The notes beneath the pieces were generated by a model. That model saw nothing but the letters and a program-made list of their open reading frames with translations, made no database searches and was not told where the DNA came from. Both the position numbers and the translations under genes were made by a program. Below, in pieces: positions 10,134-19,247 of a stretch of DNA of 64,000 nt; position 1 is the first letter of the stretch, and the number at the start of each line of letters is the position of its first letter. The stretch covers positions 44,052,001 through 44,116,000 of the forward strand of contig CM069873.1 of the NCBI GenBank assembly GCA_036172665.1. Direction: 5' to 3'. The stretch is from Prosopocoilus inquinatus. Its lineage: Eukaryota; Arthropoda; Insecta; Coleoptera; Lucanidae.

Positions 10134-10411
10134 TGTGGCGCGCCACCCGGCTTAGCTCAAGGCGTCAAGAAGTCGGTTCGTTATGCGTCATTGGCTGCCA
10201 CGCCACCGGGGTCTATATCGAACAGCCTAGACTTTCCGGCGATGGAACAAACTCGAATCTTCCAGCGTAGAGAATTCCAGACGGCAGCAAATGATATAAA
10301 ATCGCCCGGAGTTGACTCACGAGTCAGTGGAATTCGAACAGCGATCGTCGAAGTTAGATTTTAGTGTGAAAATAAATTGTTACAAATAAATTAGTTTTTA
10401 AGCTTTATTAA
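10134..10411 (+). repeat. 5' LTR of the macrodomain gypsy, first segment
   Basis: It begins TGTGGCGCGCCACC and matches the 3' LTR at 18899-19177 apart from one T. TATAAAAT at about 10298 is a candidate promoter element. It is broken at TTAA (10408-10411) by the piggyBac insertion and resumes at 13742. Confidence 0.92.
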
Positions 10412-10599
10412 CCCTTAACTGCTCGCGTGCATTACACATACGTAACTGCCCGCGTAGCGCCAATTAAAAAATTGAGAAAATATGTATTTATTTGTTTATT
10501 TAAATCAATAAGAACAAAACAACACAAACAAAATAATGTAAACAATATAAATTTGCTATTTATTTTACAAAAATAAAATTAAGTTCATTCTTTTTGTCG

Positions 10600-11046
10600 G
10601 CGTACAAATTCATATTTATTTATCTGCATAACACTCTATGCACATCCTTCTTTGATGATCAGAACATGTATGTTTGTAACAAATCACACAAATTTGTATT
10701 TGTCGAGTATGTCTATTTCTCGACCTCGGACAAAAGTGACAACGTCGCCTCTCTCCTGTAGGAGGCACCGGTATTTCGTTTTGCAAATCAATGTTGAAAT
10801 GATCTTGCAATCTTTTCTTAATTTTTTTTTGTATCTGGCCCTTTTCCATTCGCTCCCTTTGGTATGGCTCTAAAAGGGAGCGTCCCAGAATTTTCAAGAA
10901 TCGATTTTTTGGTGTTCGAATCTGAGAATTAATTTTTGAAATTATGAATGCGTTTATGGCACATACATTTATAAGATGGAAAAATATGGCCATCGGCCAT
11001 CTTCGAGTCCTTCTTCCCACATTGTAAGTTGAGCACATTTGGTCAT
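10600..11046 (-). repeat. Duplicate of the piggyBac transposase 3' end
   Basis: This stretch repeats 11493-11938 almost base for base: the zinc domain and the GVDTND-proximal region. Here the zinc domain is in frame with the upstream segment over about 140 residues, unlike the other copy. Near-identity points to a recent duplication. Confidence 0.85.
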
Positions 11047-11490
11047 TTGATAATGAATATTAGTACAAGCCGTAGAAGGTAGGGAACATTGTATAGAATA
11101 TTTTAGTCGCCAAACAACGGTTCAGGAGCAACGGTATCATTCCTTCGAATTGGAAACGTTAGCCGTTGTAAATTCAGTAAAGCATTTCCGTCATTATTTA
11201 TACGGAAGACCTTTTACCATTATAACTGATTGCGCCGCGGTACCTAGTACTTTCCAAAAAAAGAACTCAACCAACGCGTGGGTCGGTGGGGCATGGATCT
11301 CAGTGAATATCAATATGAAATCAAGCACAGGTCAAATTCACAGATGCGCCAAGTTGACGCCCTCAGCCGAAATTCTATTCCGAAAATAAAAACTATTTGC
11401 GTTTCTATTATTTCTAAAGCTGATTGGTTGCTGACCACGCAACAGCTTGGACAAGGAAATTCGAAAAATAAATGAAACTTTAGAAACGGG
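11047..11490 (+). pseudogene. Captured fragment of a gypsy RNase H domain
   Basis: The plus strand reads LETLAVVNSVKHFRHYLYGR, then FTIITDCAAV, and frameshifts into SEYQYEIKHR and VDALSRN. These are RNase H motifs of mdg4/gypsy-type pol. It resembles, but is not copied from, the RNase H at 26800-27150. It lies between the two copies of the transposase 3' end. No LTR is present, so it arrived as a fragment. Confidence 0.82.
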
Positions 11491-11501
11491 TGAATTCATA
11501 T

Positions 11502-13194
11502 TTATTTATCTGCATAACACTCTATGCACATCCTTCTTTGATGATCAGAACATGTATGTTTGTAACAAATCACACAAATTTGTATTTGTCGAGTATGTCT
11601 ATTTCTCGACCTCGGACAAAAGTGACAACGTCGCCCCTCTCCTGTAGGAGGCACCGGTATTTCGTTTTGCAAATCAATGTTGAAATGATCTTGCAATCTT
11701 TTCTTAATTTTTTTTGTATCTGGCCCTTTTCCATTCGCTCCCTTTGGTATGGCTCTAAAAGGGAGCGTCCCAGAATTTTCAAGAATCGATTTTTTGGTGT
11801 TCGAATCTGAGAATTAATTTTTGAAATTATGAATGCGTTTATGGCACATACATTTATAAGATGGAAAAATATGGCCATCGGCCATCTTCGAGTCCTTCTT
11901 CCCACATTGTAAGTTGAGCACATTTGGTCATTTGTATCGACACCTCCTTTCGTGTCGTTATAAAACATTAATATTGATGGTTTCTTCGCATCACCAGATT
12001 CAGGATCTATTTGATTGTCATTATGCAATGTTGATAACAGAAGGACGGCCTTAGACTTTTGGGCACATACGATGCAATAGTAATAGTTTTTGTGAAACCG
12101 AATAAAGTGCTTTTTGCTTCTCTTGATTTATTTGGTAGGAACTGTTGTGGAATATCTCTTTTATTCTTGCGTAATGTTCCAACCAATGTCAATCTGCATT
12201 TAGATAATAGATTTTCTGCCAAGGAAATATTGGTGTACCAATTATCTATGGTTACATTTCTTCCAGTTTTTTTCAATAGGTTCAACTAAACGCATTACTA
12301 CGTCACTGGCAGAGTTATTCATTTTATAGGGACCATCAGGTTGTTGTCCTGCGTATATTTCCATTTTCATATTGTAAAATAGTCGTGAATCTACCAATGC
12401 AAATAATTTGATGCCATTTTTATTTGGTTTTGCTGGGATGTATTGCCTGAAACTACAGTGTCCTCGAAATCCAATTAGCTGTTCGTCTATGGTTAGGTAC
12501 TCACTGGGCGTAAAAAACATACTGCATTTTTGGACAATATTTTCAAAAAGTAATCTTATAGGTGCCAATTTATCGATTTTCAGGCGATCTGATCTTGTTC
12601 GTATGTCATCAAATCTTAGACACCGCAAAATAAACAAAAATCTTTGGTAACTCATAGTCATATGAAATAAGTCATTCCCTGTACCATCTGCTGCAAATAA
12701 ATCTTTATAATTTAGGTGGGATGCACAATAGACTCCGGAAGGAATTAGAAGTCCCAGAAACGCTTTTATTTCATTCACTAGTCGTGCATCACGTTCCCTT
12801 TTATATTTTTCTGTAACTTTTTCCGTTATGTATATGTTTGTGCAATTCAGGAGAATATTTACAACTTCGTCATCAAAAAATAAAGAAAATGCTGTCAATT
12901 CATTATTTGCATCTTTTGCTGCCCCTTTACAACCCGGAAGGTGGGTAATTATATTATGTTTGCGAGCTTTAGATGTTGGTGGCGCTGCTTGCTCCATTTG
13001 GTTATACCATCTTTGCCTAGATAGTATGTTTTGTCTTGCATTGTGGTATTTTCAATATCTTCTTGATCTGCGTCTATTTCACTTGCATTATTATGGTCAG
13101 TGTTGCTGATATTCACATCTTCGTTATCATCTGAATTAAAATCAATATCTTCAGAGTCGCTCTCCAGCCACAAATTGTCAACTATTTTTTGCAA
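11502..13194 (-). pseudogene. piggyBac transposase (DDE_Tnp_1_7), frameshifted
   Basis: Reading the minus strand: an acidic N-terminus (13194-12949), then the transposase core with LTIDEQLIGFRGH (first catalytic Asp, about 12485), TIDNWYTNISLAENLL (second Asp, about 12250) and FYNDTKGGVDTNDQM (third Asp region, about 11945). A cysteine/histidine-rich C-terminal zinc domain (CHFCPRS, CVICYKHTCSDH, CIECY) follows at about 11640-11505. This enzyme cuts and pastes DNA at TTAA. At least three frame changes break it (near 12970, in a T-run at about 12265, and near 12010-12030), with another near 11700 before the zinc domain. It is therefore inactive as read, although the ends remain clear. Confidence 0.88.
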
Positions 13195-13741
13195 CTCTGT
13201 TTGCGTGAGAGGTCGCTTACGCGAGGTACTTGAGCCACTCGTGGATGCAACTCCAACATATCACCTGCATGGTCACTTGAAGACATTATTGCCGAAGACT
13301 CACTATAATACGTTATTCAGTGCACAGTGTCAAGTCGAAACTAAAGAGAAATCGGGACCCTAGCTTTATAAATCTGGTAAATAATGTAATAAATCGTAAT
13401 AAAAATATCAAACGCAGGCCATAATAAATATGCAAGTGTTCGTTTATAAGATTGTAAACTGAAAAGTTTAAGTAAACACAATCTAAGGGATTCATAATAT
13501 TTACAAACCTAACTGCTGGCGTGGCGTCTGTCAGGCTCCAATTCTGTACACGCTGGACTTATAATTTGTTTTTATGTAATATCTGTGTAATAATTTCATT
13601 GTACTTTATGATTAATATGAGAAATATATGATTGAGGAATTGGTATAGGTGCGATTACGAAAATGCCCATACTTACAAAAATATACGACTTCAAACTACT
13701 GTTGGCGCCTCTCAGACTCCACGTGAGCAGTTAAGGGTTAA

Positions 13742-13811
13742 ATTACGATTAAGTTTTTACCGAGTGTTTTATTCGTTTAAATAAATAAATTTAAACCCTA
13801 GAAACGTAACA
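13742..13811 (+). repeat. 5' LTR of the macrodomain gypsy, second segment
   Basis: It continues the 5' LTR after the piggyBac and ends in GTAACA at 13811. The following GTGGTGTCGGTGTGCGGG starts one base before a TGG, the usual start of a tRNA primer-binding site. I could not name the tRNA. Confidence 0.88.
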
Positions 13812-13909: not shown

Positions 13910-16900
13910 ATGGCTACGAGAAAAGTGTTGTTGAAAGACTTAAAAGTGGCCGAATTAAAAACCGAATTGGAAGAACGAGAGTTAGAAACCGGTGGTTTGA
14001 AAGGCGCACTTCAACAGCGTCTCCGATGCGATTTGTTGACAGCTGGTGAAGATTCAGAGACGTTCCTTTTCGAAATTTCGTGTGGTCCCGCCGATTTTAA
14101 TAAAATCTTGAAGGATGAATTTCGAGAACAATCCAGAAATTTGGACGAGAAGTTTCAAGAACAGTCTGGAAATTTCAAGGACGAACTTCGAGAACAATCC
14201 AGAAATTTGAACGAGAAGTTTCTAGAACAATCTGGAAAATTCAAGGACGAACTTCGAGAACAATCCAGAAATTTGGACGAGAAGTTTCAAGAACAGTCTG
14301 GAAATTTACAGAAGCTTCGAGAACAATCCAGAAATTTAGAGGAGAAGCTTCTAGAACAATCTGGAAATTTCGACAAATTACAAAATAAATTGTTGGAACA
14401 ATCTAGAGACTTAGACGAGAAATTTCTAAAGCAATCCAGAAATTTCGACAGGAAACTTCTAGAACAGTCCGGAAATTTGAAGGGTGAATTTCTAGAACAG
14501 ACGAAAGGACTCGAAGATAAACTAGTGGTAAAAATATCGGAAGAAACAAGAAACCTGCAAGAAAATGTGGAAGAAATAATATTCCAGCAGGATAACAAAA
14601 TCAAAAGTCTGGAACAAATCATAGCGGGGTTGCGAGTGTTCGGGGATCAGCCACCAGTAGAAATACTAGAAAATAATGAAACCCGAATTGTGGGAGGACA
14701 AGCAGAAAATTCGAAATTGAAAATAAAACCACCAACGTTCGATGGAAAGTCTTCTTGGCCCAACTACTTCAAACAGTTCGAAGCAGCAGCAAAGGCAAAC
14801 AGATGGACGGCCAGCGAAAAAGCCACTTCGTTAATTGTGGCCTTGAGAGGGGACGCTATCGATGTGCTACAGACGATGCCGCCAGAGGAACAAGAAGACT
14901 TCGACAAGCTGGTGAATAGGATGGAAATGCGTTACGGACAGGCCCATCTGACCGAGGTATACCATGCGCAGTTGAGGAATCGCTGTCAGAAATCCGGAGA
15001 AAGTCTTCAGGAATTCGAAGCAGACGTAGCGCGTCTGGCCCAGTTGGCATATCCCACAGCTCCTGTTGAATTCCTCAAATGTTTGACGGTGCAGACCTTC
15101 ATAAATGGAATCCGTGACCCAGACAACCAGCAGACATTGAGAATGACCCATCCGAAGACGTCCAAGAACGCATTGGCTTATGCCTTGGAATTTGAAGCGG
15201 CAAGACGAGTTTCAAGAGGGCATGTCAAGGTGCGAGCGGCTATGGACTTCCAAGAGGAAGAAGAGGAAGAATCCGCTAACTCCAAGGTGGGATCTGCTAT
15301 AAAGGAGCGACCCAGGGAATATACCACCGCCGAGGATGTTCGCCGCATTGTGGAACAGGTCTTCAAGCAGAAGAAGCCGCTGGTGTGGCCAGGAGGAAGG
15401 ACATATTCGCAGGCGATGTCCAAAGCCCAGACAGGATCCACGGAAGCCACAGTTAAACTAAGCCGCGTCGGTGCAGAGGGCCAGACGCCGACCCGTATTC
15501 AAAGGCCCCCAAAGACGAAATCCAAACAAGTAATATCCCTACGGCAGTTAACCAGCAGTGTCTTCGTGGATGTCACCATTGATGACATTCCTCACACCAT
15601 GTTGTTGGATACGGGTGCGACGAAGACCATCCTAAGACCCGACGTCGTTAAGTCATCTGGACGCACCGAGCCGACCAAGTGGAAACTGAAAACTGCAACT
15701 GGAACATCAGCAACTGTCCACGGTGAAGTAGAGGTTATCATCACCATTGGTTCAACTCCAATAAAACACCGTGCACTGGTGGCAGATATAGAGGACGAGG
15801 CAATTTTGGGCATGGACGTCATGTGTGCCCACGGGTTCCAATTGGACTTAAAGCGTGGCGTGATGGCGGTCAATAATGAGGAGTTGGTTCTACATCAACG
15901 AGGGGACGTGGCCGCTCGAGTAGTCCTCGCTGAAGACGTTGTTTTACCCAGCAGGACTGAGGTTATCGTCGACGCAAAACTGGACGGTGTTTTTCAAGAT
16001 GGGCAAGTCATTATGGTTGAACCTAATACTGATGATCAAAGGATTGGAAGAGGAGTCCTCGTTGGGAAAATGTTGTTGACGGCGAAGAAGGAAGTACCTG
16101 TCCGCCTGATGAACGTCAATTGTTTCTCTGTCAATATCAAAAAAGGAACAATCTTGGGAAGCTGCACCATGGTGTCCTCCATCTCCCGGCAACTTGAAAC
16201 AAACGTGCCAGAAGCGAAAGTCCCAAAGAAATTATGGGAAATGGTTATGTCAACAGCCCAGGAATTGACTCCAGACCAGAAGACAAAAGCAAAGAATCTG
16301 ATCGGCCGCTATCAAGATGTATTTGAGGTAGAAAATGGATCCAAGGGAAGAACTGATGTCGTGAAACACAAAATAGAGACTGGAGAAGAAAGACCTATCC
16401 GTCAAGCTCCAAGGCGATTACCGTTGGCGAAGCGTGAGGAAGCGGAACGCATTATTCGCGAGATGGAAAAGGATAATGTAATAGAACCATCAAGCAGCCC
16501 GTGGGCGTCACCAGTAGTGCTTGTGAAGAAGAAGGATGGGTCCACCACGTTCTGTGTAGACTACCGGTTACTCAATAATGTCACCAAGAAGGACAGCTAT
16601 CCCCTGCCACGGATTGATGATACCCTGGACACCCTGGCCGGCTCAAAGATCTTCTCAACTTTGGACTTAAAGAGTGGATATTGGCAAGTGGAGCTGGCGC
16701 CCGAAGATCGAGAAAAGACGGCGTTTTCCATTGGTATGGGTCTGTGGCAGTTCACAGTGATGCCATTCGGGTTATGTAATGCCCCAGCGACATTCGAGAG
16801 GTTAATGGAGACGGTTCTGAAAGGTCTGTCCTGGACAACGTGCATGGTGTACCTTGACGACATAATTGTCGTGGGAAAGACGTTCGACGACCACCTAAGG

Positions 16901-17449
16901 AACCTGGAAGGAGTGTTCCAGCGGCTTCGCGGAGCTGGACTAAAGCTTAGCCTCAAGAAGTGTCACCTGTTCCAGAAGGAAGTGAATTACCTGGGGCACA
17001 TTGTTAATGGAAATGGAATCGCCGTGGACCCTGTGAAGATTCAGGTGGTGAAAGACTGGCCAACTCCCGGAAATAAACACCAAATAAGGAGTTTCCTTGG
17101 CCTGTGCACTTACTATCGGCGCTACGTTCCTGGATTTGCAGACATTGCTAAGCCGTTGACAAAACTCACTGAAGAAGGTCGTCCATTTGAATGGGACCAA
17201 CAGTGTCAAATTGGCTTTGAACAACTAAAGCAGTACTTGATTAGTGCTCCTATTCTGAGTTATCCTCTCCCGGAAGGCAAGTTCGTCGTGGACACAGATG
17301 CTAGCAACGTTGGGATTGGTGGCGTACTCTCCCAGATACAAGAGGGGCAAGCCGGAACGAAAGCCGGAACGAAACTATTGCGTCACAAGAAGGGAATTGC
17401 TAGCCGTCGTAAAAACGATAGAACACTTCTACAAGTACTTGTATGGTAG
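13910..17449 (+). CDS. gag-protease-reverse transcriptase polyprotein of the macrodomain gypsy
   Basis: 1179 codons are open from an ATG in good context (AACAATGG). Domains: SAP-like DNA-binding helix pair (about residues 5-40); a hendecad coiled coil built from about a dozen 11-residue EQSxNLxEKxx units (70-205); retrotransposon gag (270-435) without a CCHC knuckle; aspartic protease with LLDTGA (565-570); reverse transcriptase (about 820-1010) with DYRLLNN, LDLKSGYWQ, PFGLCNAPATF and catalytic YLDD (981-984); start of RNase H with VDTDAS (about 1117). The coiled coil probably drives gag assembly, and SAP may replace the knuckle for nucleic acid or chromatin binding. The frame runs out of homology near 17345 in RNase H, at a local duplication GCCGGAACGAAA. 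Confidence 0.9.
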   Translation: MATRKVLLKDLKVAELKTELEERELETGGLKGALQQRLRCDLLTAGEDSETFLFEISCGPADFNKILKDEFREQSRNLDEKFQEQSGNFKDELREQSRNLNEKFLEQSGKFKDELREQSRNLDEKFQEQSGNLQKLREQSRNLEEKLLEQSGNFDKLQNKLLEQSRDLDEKFLKQSRNFDRKLLEQSGNLKGEFLEQTKGLEDKLVVKISEETRNLQENVEEIIFQQDNKIKSLEQIIAGLRVFGDQPPVEILENNETRIVGGQAENSKLKIKPPTFDGKSSWPNYFKQFEAAAKANRWTASEKATSLIVALRGDAIDVLQTMPPEEQEDFDKLVNRMEMRYGQAHLTEVYHAQLRNRCQKSGESLQEFEADVARLAQLAYPTAPVEFLKCLTVQTFINGIRDPDNQQTLRMTHPKTSKNALAYALEFEAARRVSRGHVKVRAAMDFQEEEEEESANSKVGSAIKERPREYTTAEDVRRIVEQVFKQKKPLVWPGGRTYSQAMSKAQTGSTEATVKLSRVGAEGQTPTRIQRPPKTKSKQVISLRQLTSSVFVDVTIDDIPHTMLLDTGATKTILRPDVVKSSGRTEPTKWKLKTATGTSATVHGEVEVIITIGSTPIKHRALVADIEDEAILGMDVMCAHGFQLDLKRGVMAVNNEELVLHQRGDVAARVVLAEDVVLPSRTEVIVDAKLDGVFQDGQVIMVEPNTDDQRIGRGVLVGKMLLTAKKEVPVRLMNVNCFSVNIKKGTILGSCTMVSSISRQLETNVPEAKVPKKLWEMVMSTAQELTPDQKTKAKNLIGRYQDVFEVENGSKGRTDVVKHKIETGEERPIRQAPRRLPLAKREEAERIIREMEKDNVIEPSSSPWASPVVLVKKKDGSTTFCVDYRLLNNVTKKDSYPLPRIDDTLDTLAGSKIFSTLDLKSGYWQVELAPEDREKTAFSIGMGLWQFTVMPFGLCNAPATFERLMETVLKGLSWTTCMVYLDDIIVVGKTFDDHLRNLEGVFQRLRGAGLKLSLKKCHLFQKEVNYLGHIVNGNGIAVDPVKIQVVKDWPTPGNKHQIRSFLGLCTYYRRYVPGFADIAKPLTKLTEEGRPFEWDQQCQIGFEQLKQYLISAPILSYPLPEGKFVVDTDASNVGIGGVLSQIQEGQAGTKAGTKLLRHKKGIASRRKNDRTLLQVLVW

Positions 17450-18119
17450 ACGCTTCCTGCTGAGGACCGACCACGCCGCTCTAAAATGGCTTCTCCGTTT
17501 CAAGAACCCAGAAGGGCAAGTTGCACGATGGATCGAACGACTTCAGGAGTACGATTTTGAAATTCAGCATCGGGCAGGAAGTAGCCATCGAAATGACGAT
17601 GCTTTGTCGAGAAGACCCTGTGCCGAAGACTGTAAGCACTGTAGTCGTTTGGACGAGAAAGTAGCCACGACTGCGAGGACAGCCATAGTTGACGACAAAT
17701 GGCAAGACGAAGAACTGCGAAGAGACCAGAAGAACGACCCGGATTTGAAATTAGTGCTAGAGTGGAAAAGCAGGGACGCGAGGCCTACCTGGGAAGAGGT
17801 AGCACCATGTGCACCGTCCGTAAAATCATACTGGGCGCAGTGGGACTCCATAGTGTTGGATCGTGGTCTTCTGAGACGAAGCATAGAGAATCAGGAAGGC
17901 ATGGAACAGAAGACACAGTTACTAATCCCCAAGAATAGGGTGCCAGAAGTTCTGAGGGAACTTCACGATGGAACTTCGGGAGGGCATCTGGGAGTTAAGA
18001 AGACTATGGAGAAGGTCCGCGAAAGATTTTACTGGGTGAACTGCAAGGAAGACGTGAAGGACGTCGAGGCCTCTCCCCAAAATTACAGACCTCTTGGGAA
18101 GGTCCTTACAAAGTGGTGA
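17298..18119 (+). pseudogene. RNase H remainder and N-terminal integrase, integrase core deleted
   Basis: In a shifted frame the plus strand resumes RNase H at PERNYCVTRRELLAVVKTIE (about 17367) through RTDHAALKWL and HRNDDALSRR. The integrase zinc-binding start follows: ELHDGTSGGHLGVKKTM (about 17960). It stops abruptly at VKDVE (about 18065). The C-terminal cysteines of the HHCC motif and the whole DDE catalytic core, normally around 150-200 residues, are absent. Sequence passes straight into the C-terminal GPY/F region in another frame. Some RNase H residues upstream of PERNY also appear lost. This copy could not encode a working integrase and would need one supplied in trans. Confidence 0.85.
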
Positions 18120-19036
18120 AACGGATCAACGACGTCGTTTTCCGCATCAAGAAGGTCCCCCATGGCAAACCCAAAGTAATCCACTTCAACCGGATAGCCC
18201 CTTACCATGGAGAAGCAGATGAAGGGACAGTACAAAGGGCGCAAGTTTCCGAAGTGAACTTCGAAACCTTCATGTCTCATCACGCCGAAGGAAGCAAGGC
18301 ACGGTTTGGAGTGACCACGGAGAAGCAACAAGATCTCTTTAAAGTGCCACTGGAGTACAGTCTGGCCCACTGCGTAGCAGAAGACCTGAAAATGTCCAAA
18401 GGAATCGCTCAGGTGTTTAGGAAAAAATTTGGCCAAATCGAGGAGCTACGAAGACAGCATCCCATGGTAGGCAAGAGCTTGCAGATCATTGATTCGACGG
18501 CAGATCGGAGGCGCCACGTGCATTATTTAGTCACTAAGAAGACATCAAGCGGTAAACCTGACTATCAAAGTATGTGGAGAGCGCTATATAGCCTGAGGAG
18601 GCAGCTAATAGAGAACCATCAGATGAAGTTAGCCATCCCCAAATTGGGCTGCGGATTGGACGGACTAGACCGGAGAGTAATTCGAAGCATGCTGGAAGTC
18701 ATCTTCCACAGAACGGGAATTGAAGTCCTAGTCTGCAGCCACCACCCACAGGCAACAGTCAGCAACAGCAAAACCGTAGACTGCTACTTCTTCCAGACGG
18801 GAAGTTGCAAGAATGGGCCAGCATGTAGATTCCGACACCCTCCTTCAAGACTATCACCAGGAACATTTCGAGATGAAACGTTTTTAAGAAGGGGGCAGTG
18901 TGGCGCGCCACCCGGCTTAGCTCAAGGCGTCAAGAAGTCGGTTCGTTATGCGTCATTGGCTGCCACGCCACCGGGGTCTATATCGAACAGCCTAGACTTT
19001 TCCGGCGATGGAACAAACTCGAATCTTCCAGCGTAG
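18092..19036 (+). CDS. Integrase GPY/F module fused to a TARG1-like macrodomain and a CCCH zinc finger
   Basis: The frame is open from the integrase deletion into the 3' LTR. Numbering from codon 18113, residues 1-30 finish a GPY/F-type module (GPYKVVKR just upstream). Residues 73-208 (18329-18736) resemble the OARD1/TARG1 macrodomain, which binds ADP-ribose and removes it from proteins or nucleic acid. Landmarks are DLFKVP, SLAHCVAED, GIAQVFRKKFG, YLVTKK and LGCGLDGLD. The Asp of GCGLD (183) matches a TARG1 active-site Asp; the catalytic Lys position is not clearly kept (Met118 by rough alignment, Lys121 nearby). Residues 224-242 (18782-18838) form CYFFQTGSCKNGPACRFRH, a C-x7-C-x5-C-x3-H finger typical of RNA binding. 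The last 46 residues are translated from the LTR. I infer ADP-ribose and RNA binding; the host partner is unknown. Confidence 0.85.
   Translation, partial: SWEGPYKVVKRINDVVFRIKKVPHGKPKVIHFNRIAPYHGEADEGTVQRAQVSEVNFETFMSHHAEGSKARFGVTTEKQQDLFKVPLEYSLAHCVAEDLKMSKGIAQVFRKKFGQIEELRRQHPMVGKSLQIIDSTADRRRHVHYLVTKKTSSGKPDYQSMWRALYSLRRQLIENHQMKLAIPKLGCGLDGLDRRVIRSMLEVIFHRTGIEVLVCSHHPQATVSNSKTVDCYFFQTGSCKNGPACRFRHPPSRLSPGTFRDETFLRRGQCGAPPGLAQGVKKSVRYASLAATPPGSISNSLDFSGDGTNSNLPA
18886..18898 (+). other. Polypurine tract
   Basis: AAGAAGGGGGCAG lies immediately before the TGTGGCGC of the 3' LTR, where plus-strand DNA synthesis of an LTR element is primed. Confidence 0.75.
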
Positions 19037-19247
19037 AGAATTCCAGACGGCAGCAAATGATATAAAATCGCCCGGAGTTGACTCACGAGTCAGTGGAATT
19101 CGAACAGCGATCGTCGAAGTTAGATTTTAGTGTGAAAATAAATTGTTACAAATAAATTAGTTTTTAAGCTTTATTAAATTACGATTAAGTTTTTACCGAG
19201 TGTTTTATTCGTTTAAATAAATAAATTTAAACCCTAGAAACGTAACA
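18899..19247 (+). repeat. 3' LTR of the macrodomain gypsy (349 bp)
   Basis: It runs from TGTGGCGCGCC to GTAACA. It matches the split 5' LTR with one T inserted in a T-run. It is followed by GTAT, the target duplication. A diverged solo copy of this LTR lies at 35991-36323. Confidence 0.95.

What the first reader, a model, noticed from the sequence alone, without database searches (positions are those of the whole stretch)
18092..19036. A Ty3/gypsy retrotransposon that carries a TARG1-like macrodomain and a CCCH zinc finger
Seen: an open frame behind the integrase GPY/F module continues into a ~135-residue macrodomain with LAHCVAED, GIAQVFRKKFG and LGCGLDGLD, then a C-x7-C-x5-C-x3-H finger, before the polypurine tract. 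Known: TARG1/OARD1 macrodomains bind or hydrolyse ADP-ribose. Several RNA viruses carry macrodomains that counter host PARPs, and the host factor ZAP/PARP13 combines CCCH fingers with PARP-type domains. Inference: the element may have acquired a host macrodomain to oppose ADP-ribosylation-based silencing or repair, with the CCCH finger guiding it to RNA. I do not know of a described element with this layout.
Basis: partly seen in the sequence, partly recalled or inferred. Interest (0 to 1): 0.93.

Follow-up and report, generated by a model that had tools for sequence, protein, structure and literature searches.

The report
Jumping genes carrying ADP-ribose erasers
An abundant jumping gene, probably of an insect, carries a copy of a cellular enzyme-type domain whose best-known relative strips ADP-ribose tags from proteins and nucleic acids; other jumping genes carry similar domains in other places, which hints at a host defence that they need to undo.

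The parts
10134..10411 (+). 5' LTR, first part (interrupted by a DNA-transposon insertion)
   Evidence: 0 mismatches, one 1-nt indel to 3' LTR 18899-19177; target-site duplication GTAT before it and after 19247
10412..13737 (-). piggyBac-like element inserted into the 5' LTR; TTAA at 10408-10411 and 13738-13741, inverted ends
   Evidence: the name piggyBac and its TTAA habit are recalled, no family search was run on it
13738..13811 (+). 5' LTR, last part
   Evidence: identical to 19174-19247
13910..15265 (+). Gag with N-terminal SAP domain and 33-bp repeats; no CCHC knuckle
   Evidence: Pfam SAP 1.1e-6; repeats; motif scan
15566..15823 (+). aspartic protease
   Evidence: Pfam Asp_protease_2 9.7e-11
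16523..17005 (+). reverse transcriptase
   Evidence: Pfam RVT_1 1.3e-36
17361..17552 (+). RNase H, later part, in another frame than RT
   Evidence: Pfam RT_RNaseH 1.1e-18; frames
17925..18062 (+). integrase H2C2 zinc-binding domain; the integrase core that should follow is missing
   Evidence: Pfam 4.3e-14; 48 of 49 other own-genome loci have all or part of the core
18119..18202 (+). integrase C-terminal domain (p58 type), end
   Evidence: Pfam 1.3e-6
18308..18742 (+). TARG1/OARD1-class macrodomain; dyad equivalents Lys at 18536-18538, Asp at 18659-18661
18782..18838 (+). CCCH zinc finger (C-x7-C-x5-C-x3-H)
   Evidence: Pfam zf-CCCH 7.5e-8
18886..18898 (+). polypurine tract
   Evidence: sequence next to LTR start
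18899..19247 (+). 3' LTR

Best explanation
The window holds a young but defective copy of an abundant Ty3/gypsy-type element whose Pol ends in an accessory module: a TARG1-class macrodomain and a CCCH finger. Shown: the fold, the retained Lys/Asp dyad, the layout in many copies and several species, purifying selection on the macrodomain, and TARG1-like macrodomains at other Pol positions in other elements. Inferred: the module is made as part of Pol and carried into the particle, is an active ADP-ribosyl hydrolase, and removes ADP-ribose that host PARP-type enzymes put on element proteins, RNA or cDNA ends, so that reverse transcription, integration or expression can go on. The CCCH finger may hold it on the element's RNA.
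For: TARG1 match by sequence and fold. Dyad equivalents: Lys in 80 of 81 and Asp in 79 of 81 rows counted as element (many near-identical Molorchus rows); all 30 host-like and ligase rows keep both. Purifying selection: 13 nonsynonymous and 18 synonymous distinct changes among 14 copies (window copy included) ranked by LTR similarity, per-site ratio 0.21, binomial p 2.4e-5; omega 0.15-0.26, upper bootstrap limits 0.26-0.51, in the eight more diverged pairs of the own-genome protease-macro-RT family. Recurrence: 25 of 25 fetched own-genome loci with a TARG1-like Pfam hit carry other pol pieces. Literature: TARG1 removes ADP-ribose from acidic residues and from phosphate ends of DNA and RNA (PMC7050489, PMC8053099, passages). 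In parp-1 mutant flies, of eight significantly changed mobile elements five rose and three fell (three of the eight are gypsy-superfamily); ten more rose without passing the false-discovery limit, nine of them gypsy-superfamily (PMC7712786, passages).
Against: No activity was measured. P0009 has neither dyad residue and P0021 lacks the Asp. The window copy has Arg where a Trp is nearly invariant. The parp-1 authors say that derepression may be indirect, and most of the gypsy-type changes missed the false-discovery limit. Near-identical pairs decide little: bootstrap upper limits 0.92, 1.20, 1.34, and single ratios up to 0.85 and 1.67 at dS about 0.01 (L019/L021, L016/L017). In the LTR-based sample the CCCH finger showed no constraint (2 synonymous, 8 nonsynonymous; p 0.71).
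Confidence: 0.5

Rival explanations
1. The macrodomain is a reader, not an eraser: fused behind integrase it binds poly- or mono-ADP-ribose on chromatin or at DNA breaks and steers integration, as chromodomains do.
For: In the window lineage it sits right behind the integrase C-terminus, the place where chromodomains sit in chromoviruses (recalled); protein P0140 carries integrase, chromodomain and macro pieces together.
Against: The catalytic dyad is kept in 80 and 79 of 81 rows. In other elements the domain lies before protease, between protease and RT or between RNase H and integrase, not next to the integrase end.
Confidence: 0.2
2. Macrodomain plus CCCH is mainly a nucleic-acid-binding module that replaces the CCHC nucleocapsid knuckle in RNA packaging.
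For: No CCHC motif in the window Gag or, in open stretches over 200 codons, in 4 of 4 other own-genome Gag pieces; human TARG1 binds RNA, not or not only through the ADP-ribose pocket (PMC5928194, passages); the CCCH finger is conserved between 18 chosen rows (mean identity 0.52 against 0.29-0.43 in linkers and tail).
Against: Eleven Molorchus proteins have both CCHC and CCCH; the retained dyad is not needed for RNA binding; other elements have the macrodomain without CCCH; no constraint on CCCH among recent copies.
Confidence: 0.15
3. The domain acts on free metabolites (O-acetyl-ADP-ribose or other ADP-ribose esters) and changes NAD or sirtuin signalling of the host.
For: TARG1 hydrolyses O-acyl-ADP-ribose (PMC7050489, passage).
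Against: A domain in Pol, made at low level and put into particles (recalled Pol biology), is a poor way to change a metabolite pool.
Confidence: 0.08
4. Neutral passenger: a captured exon carried along by a successful element.
For: Elements can carry captured host sequence (recalled).
Against: Purifying selection; macro more conserved (mean identity 0.55) than linkers (0.29-0.37) between species; probably more than one capture.
Confidence: 0.04

Closest known systems
Human TARG1/OARD1/C6orf130 (ALC1-like macrodomain hydrolase)
   Same: Fold, sequence (35-36% identity), Lys84/Asp125 equivalents
   Different: Cellular stand-alone protein; here inside a retrotransposon Pol, next to CCCH; activity untested
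Fish epsilon-like endogenous retroviruses with macro-domain ORFs (Basta et al. 2009, known to me only from the review PMC4977317, passage)
   Same: A retroelement that carries a macro domain
   Different: Vertebrate retrovirus with an additional ORF; here Ty3/gypsy-type Pol, in frame, several positions, with CCCH in one lineage
[quoted passage not shown]
   Same: Gypsy Pol carrying a conserved ADP-ribose-processing domain
   Different: NADAR, not macro; brown alga; authors suggest RNA processing
Macrodomains of alphaviruses and rubella virus and coronaviruses
   Different: More distant: 14-19% identity for these rows; RNA viruses
Chromodomain Ty3/gypsy elements (chromoviruses; recalled)
   Same: Extra domain fused behind integrase
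   Different: Chromodomain reads histone marks; here an ADP-ribose domain

Membership tests
Ty3/gypsy LTR retrotransposon | Paired LTRs with short target-site duplication | tested here: met
   LTRs differ by one 1-nt indel, GTAT duplication
Ty3/gypsy LTR retrotransposon | Domain order protease-RT-RNase H-integrase | tested here: met
   Window: order met but integrase core missing; P0112, P0153: full order; own loci: 47 of 50 RNase H-H2C2-core-C-term-macro-CCCH
Ty3/gypsy LTR retrotransposon | RT clusters with named Ty3/gypsy reference elements in a tree | not tested
   No named reference RTs were placed; the RT tree holds only macro-bearing elements
TARG1/OARD1-class macrodomain | Sequence and fold of the class | tested here: met
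TARG1/OARD1-class macrodomain | Catalytic Lys84 and Asp125 | tested here: met
   Aligned residues present in the window copy; 80 and 79 of 81 element rows. Lys84 from PMC7050489; position 125 is Asp in the PDB chain, though that paper prints Glu125
TARG1/OARD1-class macrodomain | ADP-ribosyl hydrolase activity | not testable with these tools
   Needs an enzyme assay
CCCH zinc finger (PF00642) | C-x7/8-C-x5-C-x3-H, over curated cut-off | tested here: met
   32.5 bits against 20.5
CCCH zinc finger (PF00642) | RNA binding | not testable with these tools
   Needs a binding assay
NADAR-bearing Gypsy | NADAR domain in Pol | tested here: not met
   No NADAR family at E up to 1 in the seven window pieces scanned; the integrase core is missing there and could not be scanned
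Macro-bearing fish endogenous retroviruses | Retrovirus RT and separate macro ORF | not tested
   The fish elements were not fetched; the 2009 paper is not held

The most novel reading that the evidence does not exclude
Ty3/gypsy elements of insects and other animals have repeatedly and independently captured host TARG1 genes into different places of Pol because ADP-ribosylation of element proteins, RNA or cDNA ends is a general, so far unrecognised barrier to retrotransposition, and one such capture drives an abundant element family.
Probability: 0.35. Interest if true: 0.92.

Novelty: new variant of a known kind. Interest (0 to 1): 0.8.

Why it matters
Viral macrodomains are known counters to host PARPs (recalled). 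In-frame TARG1-type domains in retrotransposon Pol, with the active site conserved, suggest that ADP-ribosylation restricts retrotransposons in animals. It makes that directly testable with an isolated small domain and with PARP loss in insects. It also gives natural replicates: several elements with the domain in different places.

Tried and rejected
One-off captured exon: rejected by 49 of 49 other own-genome loci and several species. Artefact of a weak Pfam score: rejected. Single capture then spread: a clade of all 41 element rows is rejected at p-AU 0.028 when the 14 rows of unknown nature are not counted as others. The groups were named before the tree, but 'host-like' is my label from names and lack of pol pieces, not verified gene by gene, and the bootstrap had not settled. 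The p of 2.5e-7 counted the unknown rows as others although some group with elements, so it is not used. That the CCCH lineage and the Rhynchophorus element share one capture: p-AU 0.0445, borderline, and named after seeing the tree. That the protease-macro-RT family swapped its macrodomain between L007/L010/L012 and L013/L015/L019: not shown (p-AU 0.36); the much higher dS in macro (1.1) than in RT (0.22) between L007 and L010 remains unexplained.

Selection counts (macro ratio 0.07 and 0.29) are biased, because copies were ranked by protein similarity, and one search counted the window copy twice (as L029 too); they are not used. The LTR-based sample is rows 1-14 of the 40 listed by similarity (2691 candidates); it is small and leans to close copies. 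One of its 14 copies, L085, has a 1-nt gap and a stop in that frame. Searches scored only 150 of 1493 and 139 of 1425 candidates and overlap, so copy numbers are not exact.

Viral contigs gave no relative. Structure matches for parts outside the macrodomain were not looked for separately. Not in print, as far as searched: 87 of an open-licence library without preprints. Most listings were partial (2 of 2, 20 of 102, 15 of 41, 20 of 38, 4 of 4, 12 of 510, 25 of 31, 15 of 16), and passages were read in nine papers only. The fish-virus paper and the TARG1 structure paper are not held.

Full report
What is there. The window lies in an unnamed 650-Mb genome, probably an insect's (inferred from the relatives). 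Between 10134 and 19247 is a Ty3/gypsy-type LTR element. Its two LTRs differ by a single 1-nt indel and are flanked by the duplication GTAT; the 5' LTR was later split at a TTAA by a piggyBac-like transposon. Inside are Gag with a SAP domain, aspartic protease, RT, RNase H, the H2C2 integrase domain, the end of an integrase C-terminal domain, then the reported module. The copy is young but defective: RNase H is in two frames and the integrase core is missing. One other locus, L033, also lacks the core.

Not a one-off. A protein search listed 95 proteins; in a check with separate pieces, 18 of the 95 have integrase C-term, macro and CCCH in that order, the named ones from Aromia, Molorchus, Exocentrus, Gonioctena and Callosobruchus, which are beetles (recalled). 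Shorter proteins of Acanthoscelides and Brassicogethes have macro and CCCH. One search listed 23 long proteins, the query P0112 included; P0112 and P0153 have the full order protease-RT-RNase H-integrase-macro-CCCH. In the own genome the first look gave 1493 candidates; the 150 scored are 98-100% identical to the window's stretch, 4 of them with an internal stop. A second, overlapping search scored 139, 7 with a stop. Of the 50 loci fetched in these two searches, one is the window copy (L029); all 49 others show integrase C-term, macro and CCCH, and 48 of them all or part of the integrase core.

Constraint. Among 18 chosen relatives, mean pairwise identity is 0.66 for the integrase end, 0.55 for macro and 0.52 for CCCH, against 0.37 and 0.29 for the linkers and 0.43 for the tail. 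To avoid choosing copies by the domain itself, I took the first 14 of 40 places ranked by polypurine-tract-plus-LTR similarity (sequences in hand or; the first is the window copy). In their macrodomain there are 13 nonsynonymous and 18 synonymous distinct changes against the window copy, where neutrality predicts 3.4 to 1 (binomial p 2.4e-5). One of the 14 has a 1-nt gap and a stop. The CCCH finger shows 8 to 2 (p 0.71), so no constraint is shown there. Earlier counts are biased by the way copies were chosen and are not used.

Other elements, other positions. The Pfam Macro search of the genome gave 39 hits. Of the 28 loci fetched from them (pieces of 3.1-3.9 kb), 3 show no pol pieces (L001-L003, which look like MacroD-type host genes by motif, recalled), and 25 of 25 others carry pol pieces next to a TARG1-like macrodomain. 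Thirteen of these have protease-macro-RT, six have integrase-macro without a CCCH match, and six show only part of a layout (protease-macro, macro-RT or protease-macro-RNase H). Nineteen of the 39 hits lie in open frames of 1575-1953 codons. In database proteins the domain also occurs between RNase H and integrase (P0141 Leptinotarsa, P0145 Rhynchophorus; P0078 and P0085 end behind or within the macrodomain), before protease (P0144, P0131) and behind integrase without CCCH (P0137, P0147, P0140). In the own-genome protease-macro-RT family the eight more diverged pairs give omega 0.15-0.26 (upper bootstrap limits 0.26-0.51); near-identical pairs decide little (upper limits 0.92-1.34; single ratios up to 1.67).

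How many captures. In a tree of 85 macrodomains (the bootstrap had not settled) the window lineage lies in one set (99/88) of 21 rows: 18 with CCCH, two integrase-macro rows without it and one unknown. Elements with the domain elsewhere fall in several places. The Rhynchophorus element falls with a Dendroctonus host-like protein and an unknown (99/88), P0078 with Adineta, Didymodactylos and an unknown (98/94). A single element clade is rejected at p-AU 0.028 with rows of unknown nature set aside. That is moderate support for more than one capture, not a count.

What it does. TARG1 removes ADP-ribose from acidic residues and from phosphate ends of DNA and RNA (PMC7050489 and PMC8053099, passages) and binds RNA (PMC5928194, passages). 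Retained dyad, purifying selection and presence at different Pol positions fit best with an enzyme that must be in the particle rather than a part of integrase. Host ADP-ribosylation as the target is inference. Indirect support: in parp-1 mutant flies five of eight significantly changed mobile elements rose and three fell, and nine of ten further risers, none past the false-discovery limit, are gypsy-superfamily; the authors allow an indirect effect (PMC7712786, passages). SIRT6 silences L1 through mono-ADP-ribosylation of KAP1 (PMC4695847, passages). A reader role in integration targeting and an RNA-packaging role are the main rivals. The window Gag and 4 of 4 other own-genome Gag pieces show no CCHC knuckle, while 12 Molorchus relatives have one, 11 of them together with CCCH.

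Known before. A review states that some ray-finned fish endogenous retroviruses have extra ORFs for macro-domain proteins (PMC4977317, passage; the cited 2009 paper was not available). Ectocarpus Gypsy elements carry NADAR domains (PMC12477816, passages). Searches for macrodomain or macro domain with retrotransposon, Gypsy, OARD1 and related terms listed no report of macrodomains in Ty3/gypsy elements (open-licence papers only, listings partly cut). So this is a new variant of a known kind: TARG1-type domains in Ty3/gypsy-type Pol, at several positions, with CCCH in one abundant lineage.

Noticed in passing
window 10412-13737: piggyBac-like transposon with inverted ends inserted at TTAA into the 5' LTR; it holds a direct duplication (10607-11049 and 11493-11934).
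   Followed up: partly
window 14093-14532: 33-bp repeats in Gag (9 overlapping copies) coding an EQSRNL-type repeat behind an N-terminal SAP domain.
   Followed up: partly
L033 (G000:C5:31953544-31954212 and flanks): A second locus with the same 345-codon open frame length and no integrase core, 99.8% identical to the window copy over macro-CCCH: the defective form may have been copied in trans.
   Followed up: no
L007 541-3219 and L010 904-3504: Between two own-genome copies of the protease-macro-RT family dS is 0.22 in RT, 0.42 in protease and 1.1 in macro: the macrodomain looks older than its backbone.
   Followed up: partly
P0124, P0127, P0136: DNA-ligase-III-like proteins (by precomputed Pfam accessions, names recalled) with a TARG1-like macrodomain.
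   Followed up: no
P0141, P0157 and others: Element proteins carry misleading public names such as tropomodulin or cleavage and polyadenylation factor.
   Followed up: no
P0156, P0173: Records named Erysiphe pulchra (a fungus, recalled) on 5-7 kb contigs hold the same kind of element; possibly contamination.
   Followed up: no
P0093, P0095: Danio proteins with a TARG1-like macrodomain behind an unrelated N-terminus, possibly the fish-retrovirus macro ORFs.
   Followed up: no
L079-L082 and window Gag: No CCHC knuckle found in own-genome Gag pieces, although 12 Molorchus relatives have it.
   Followed up: partly
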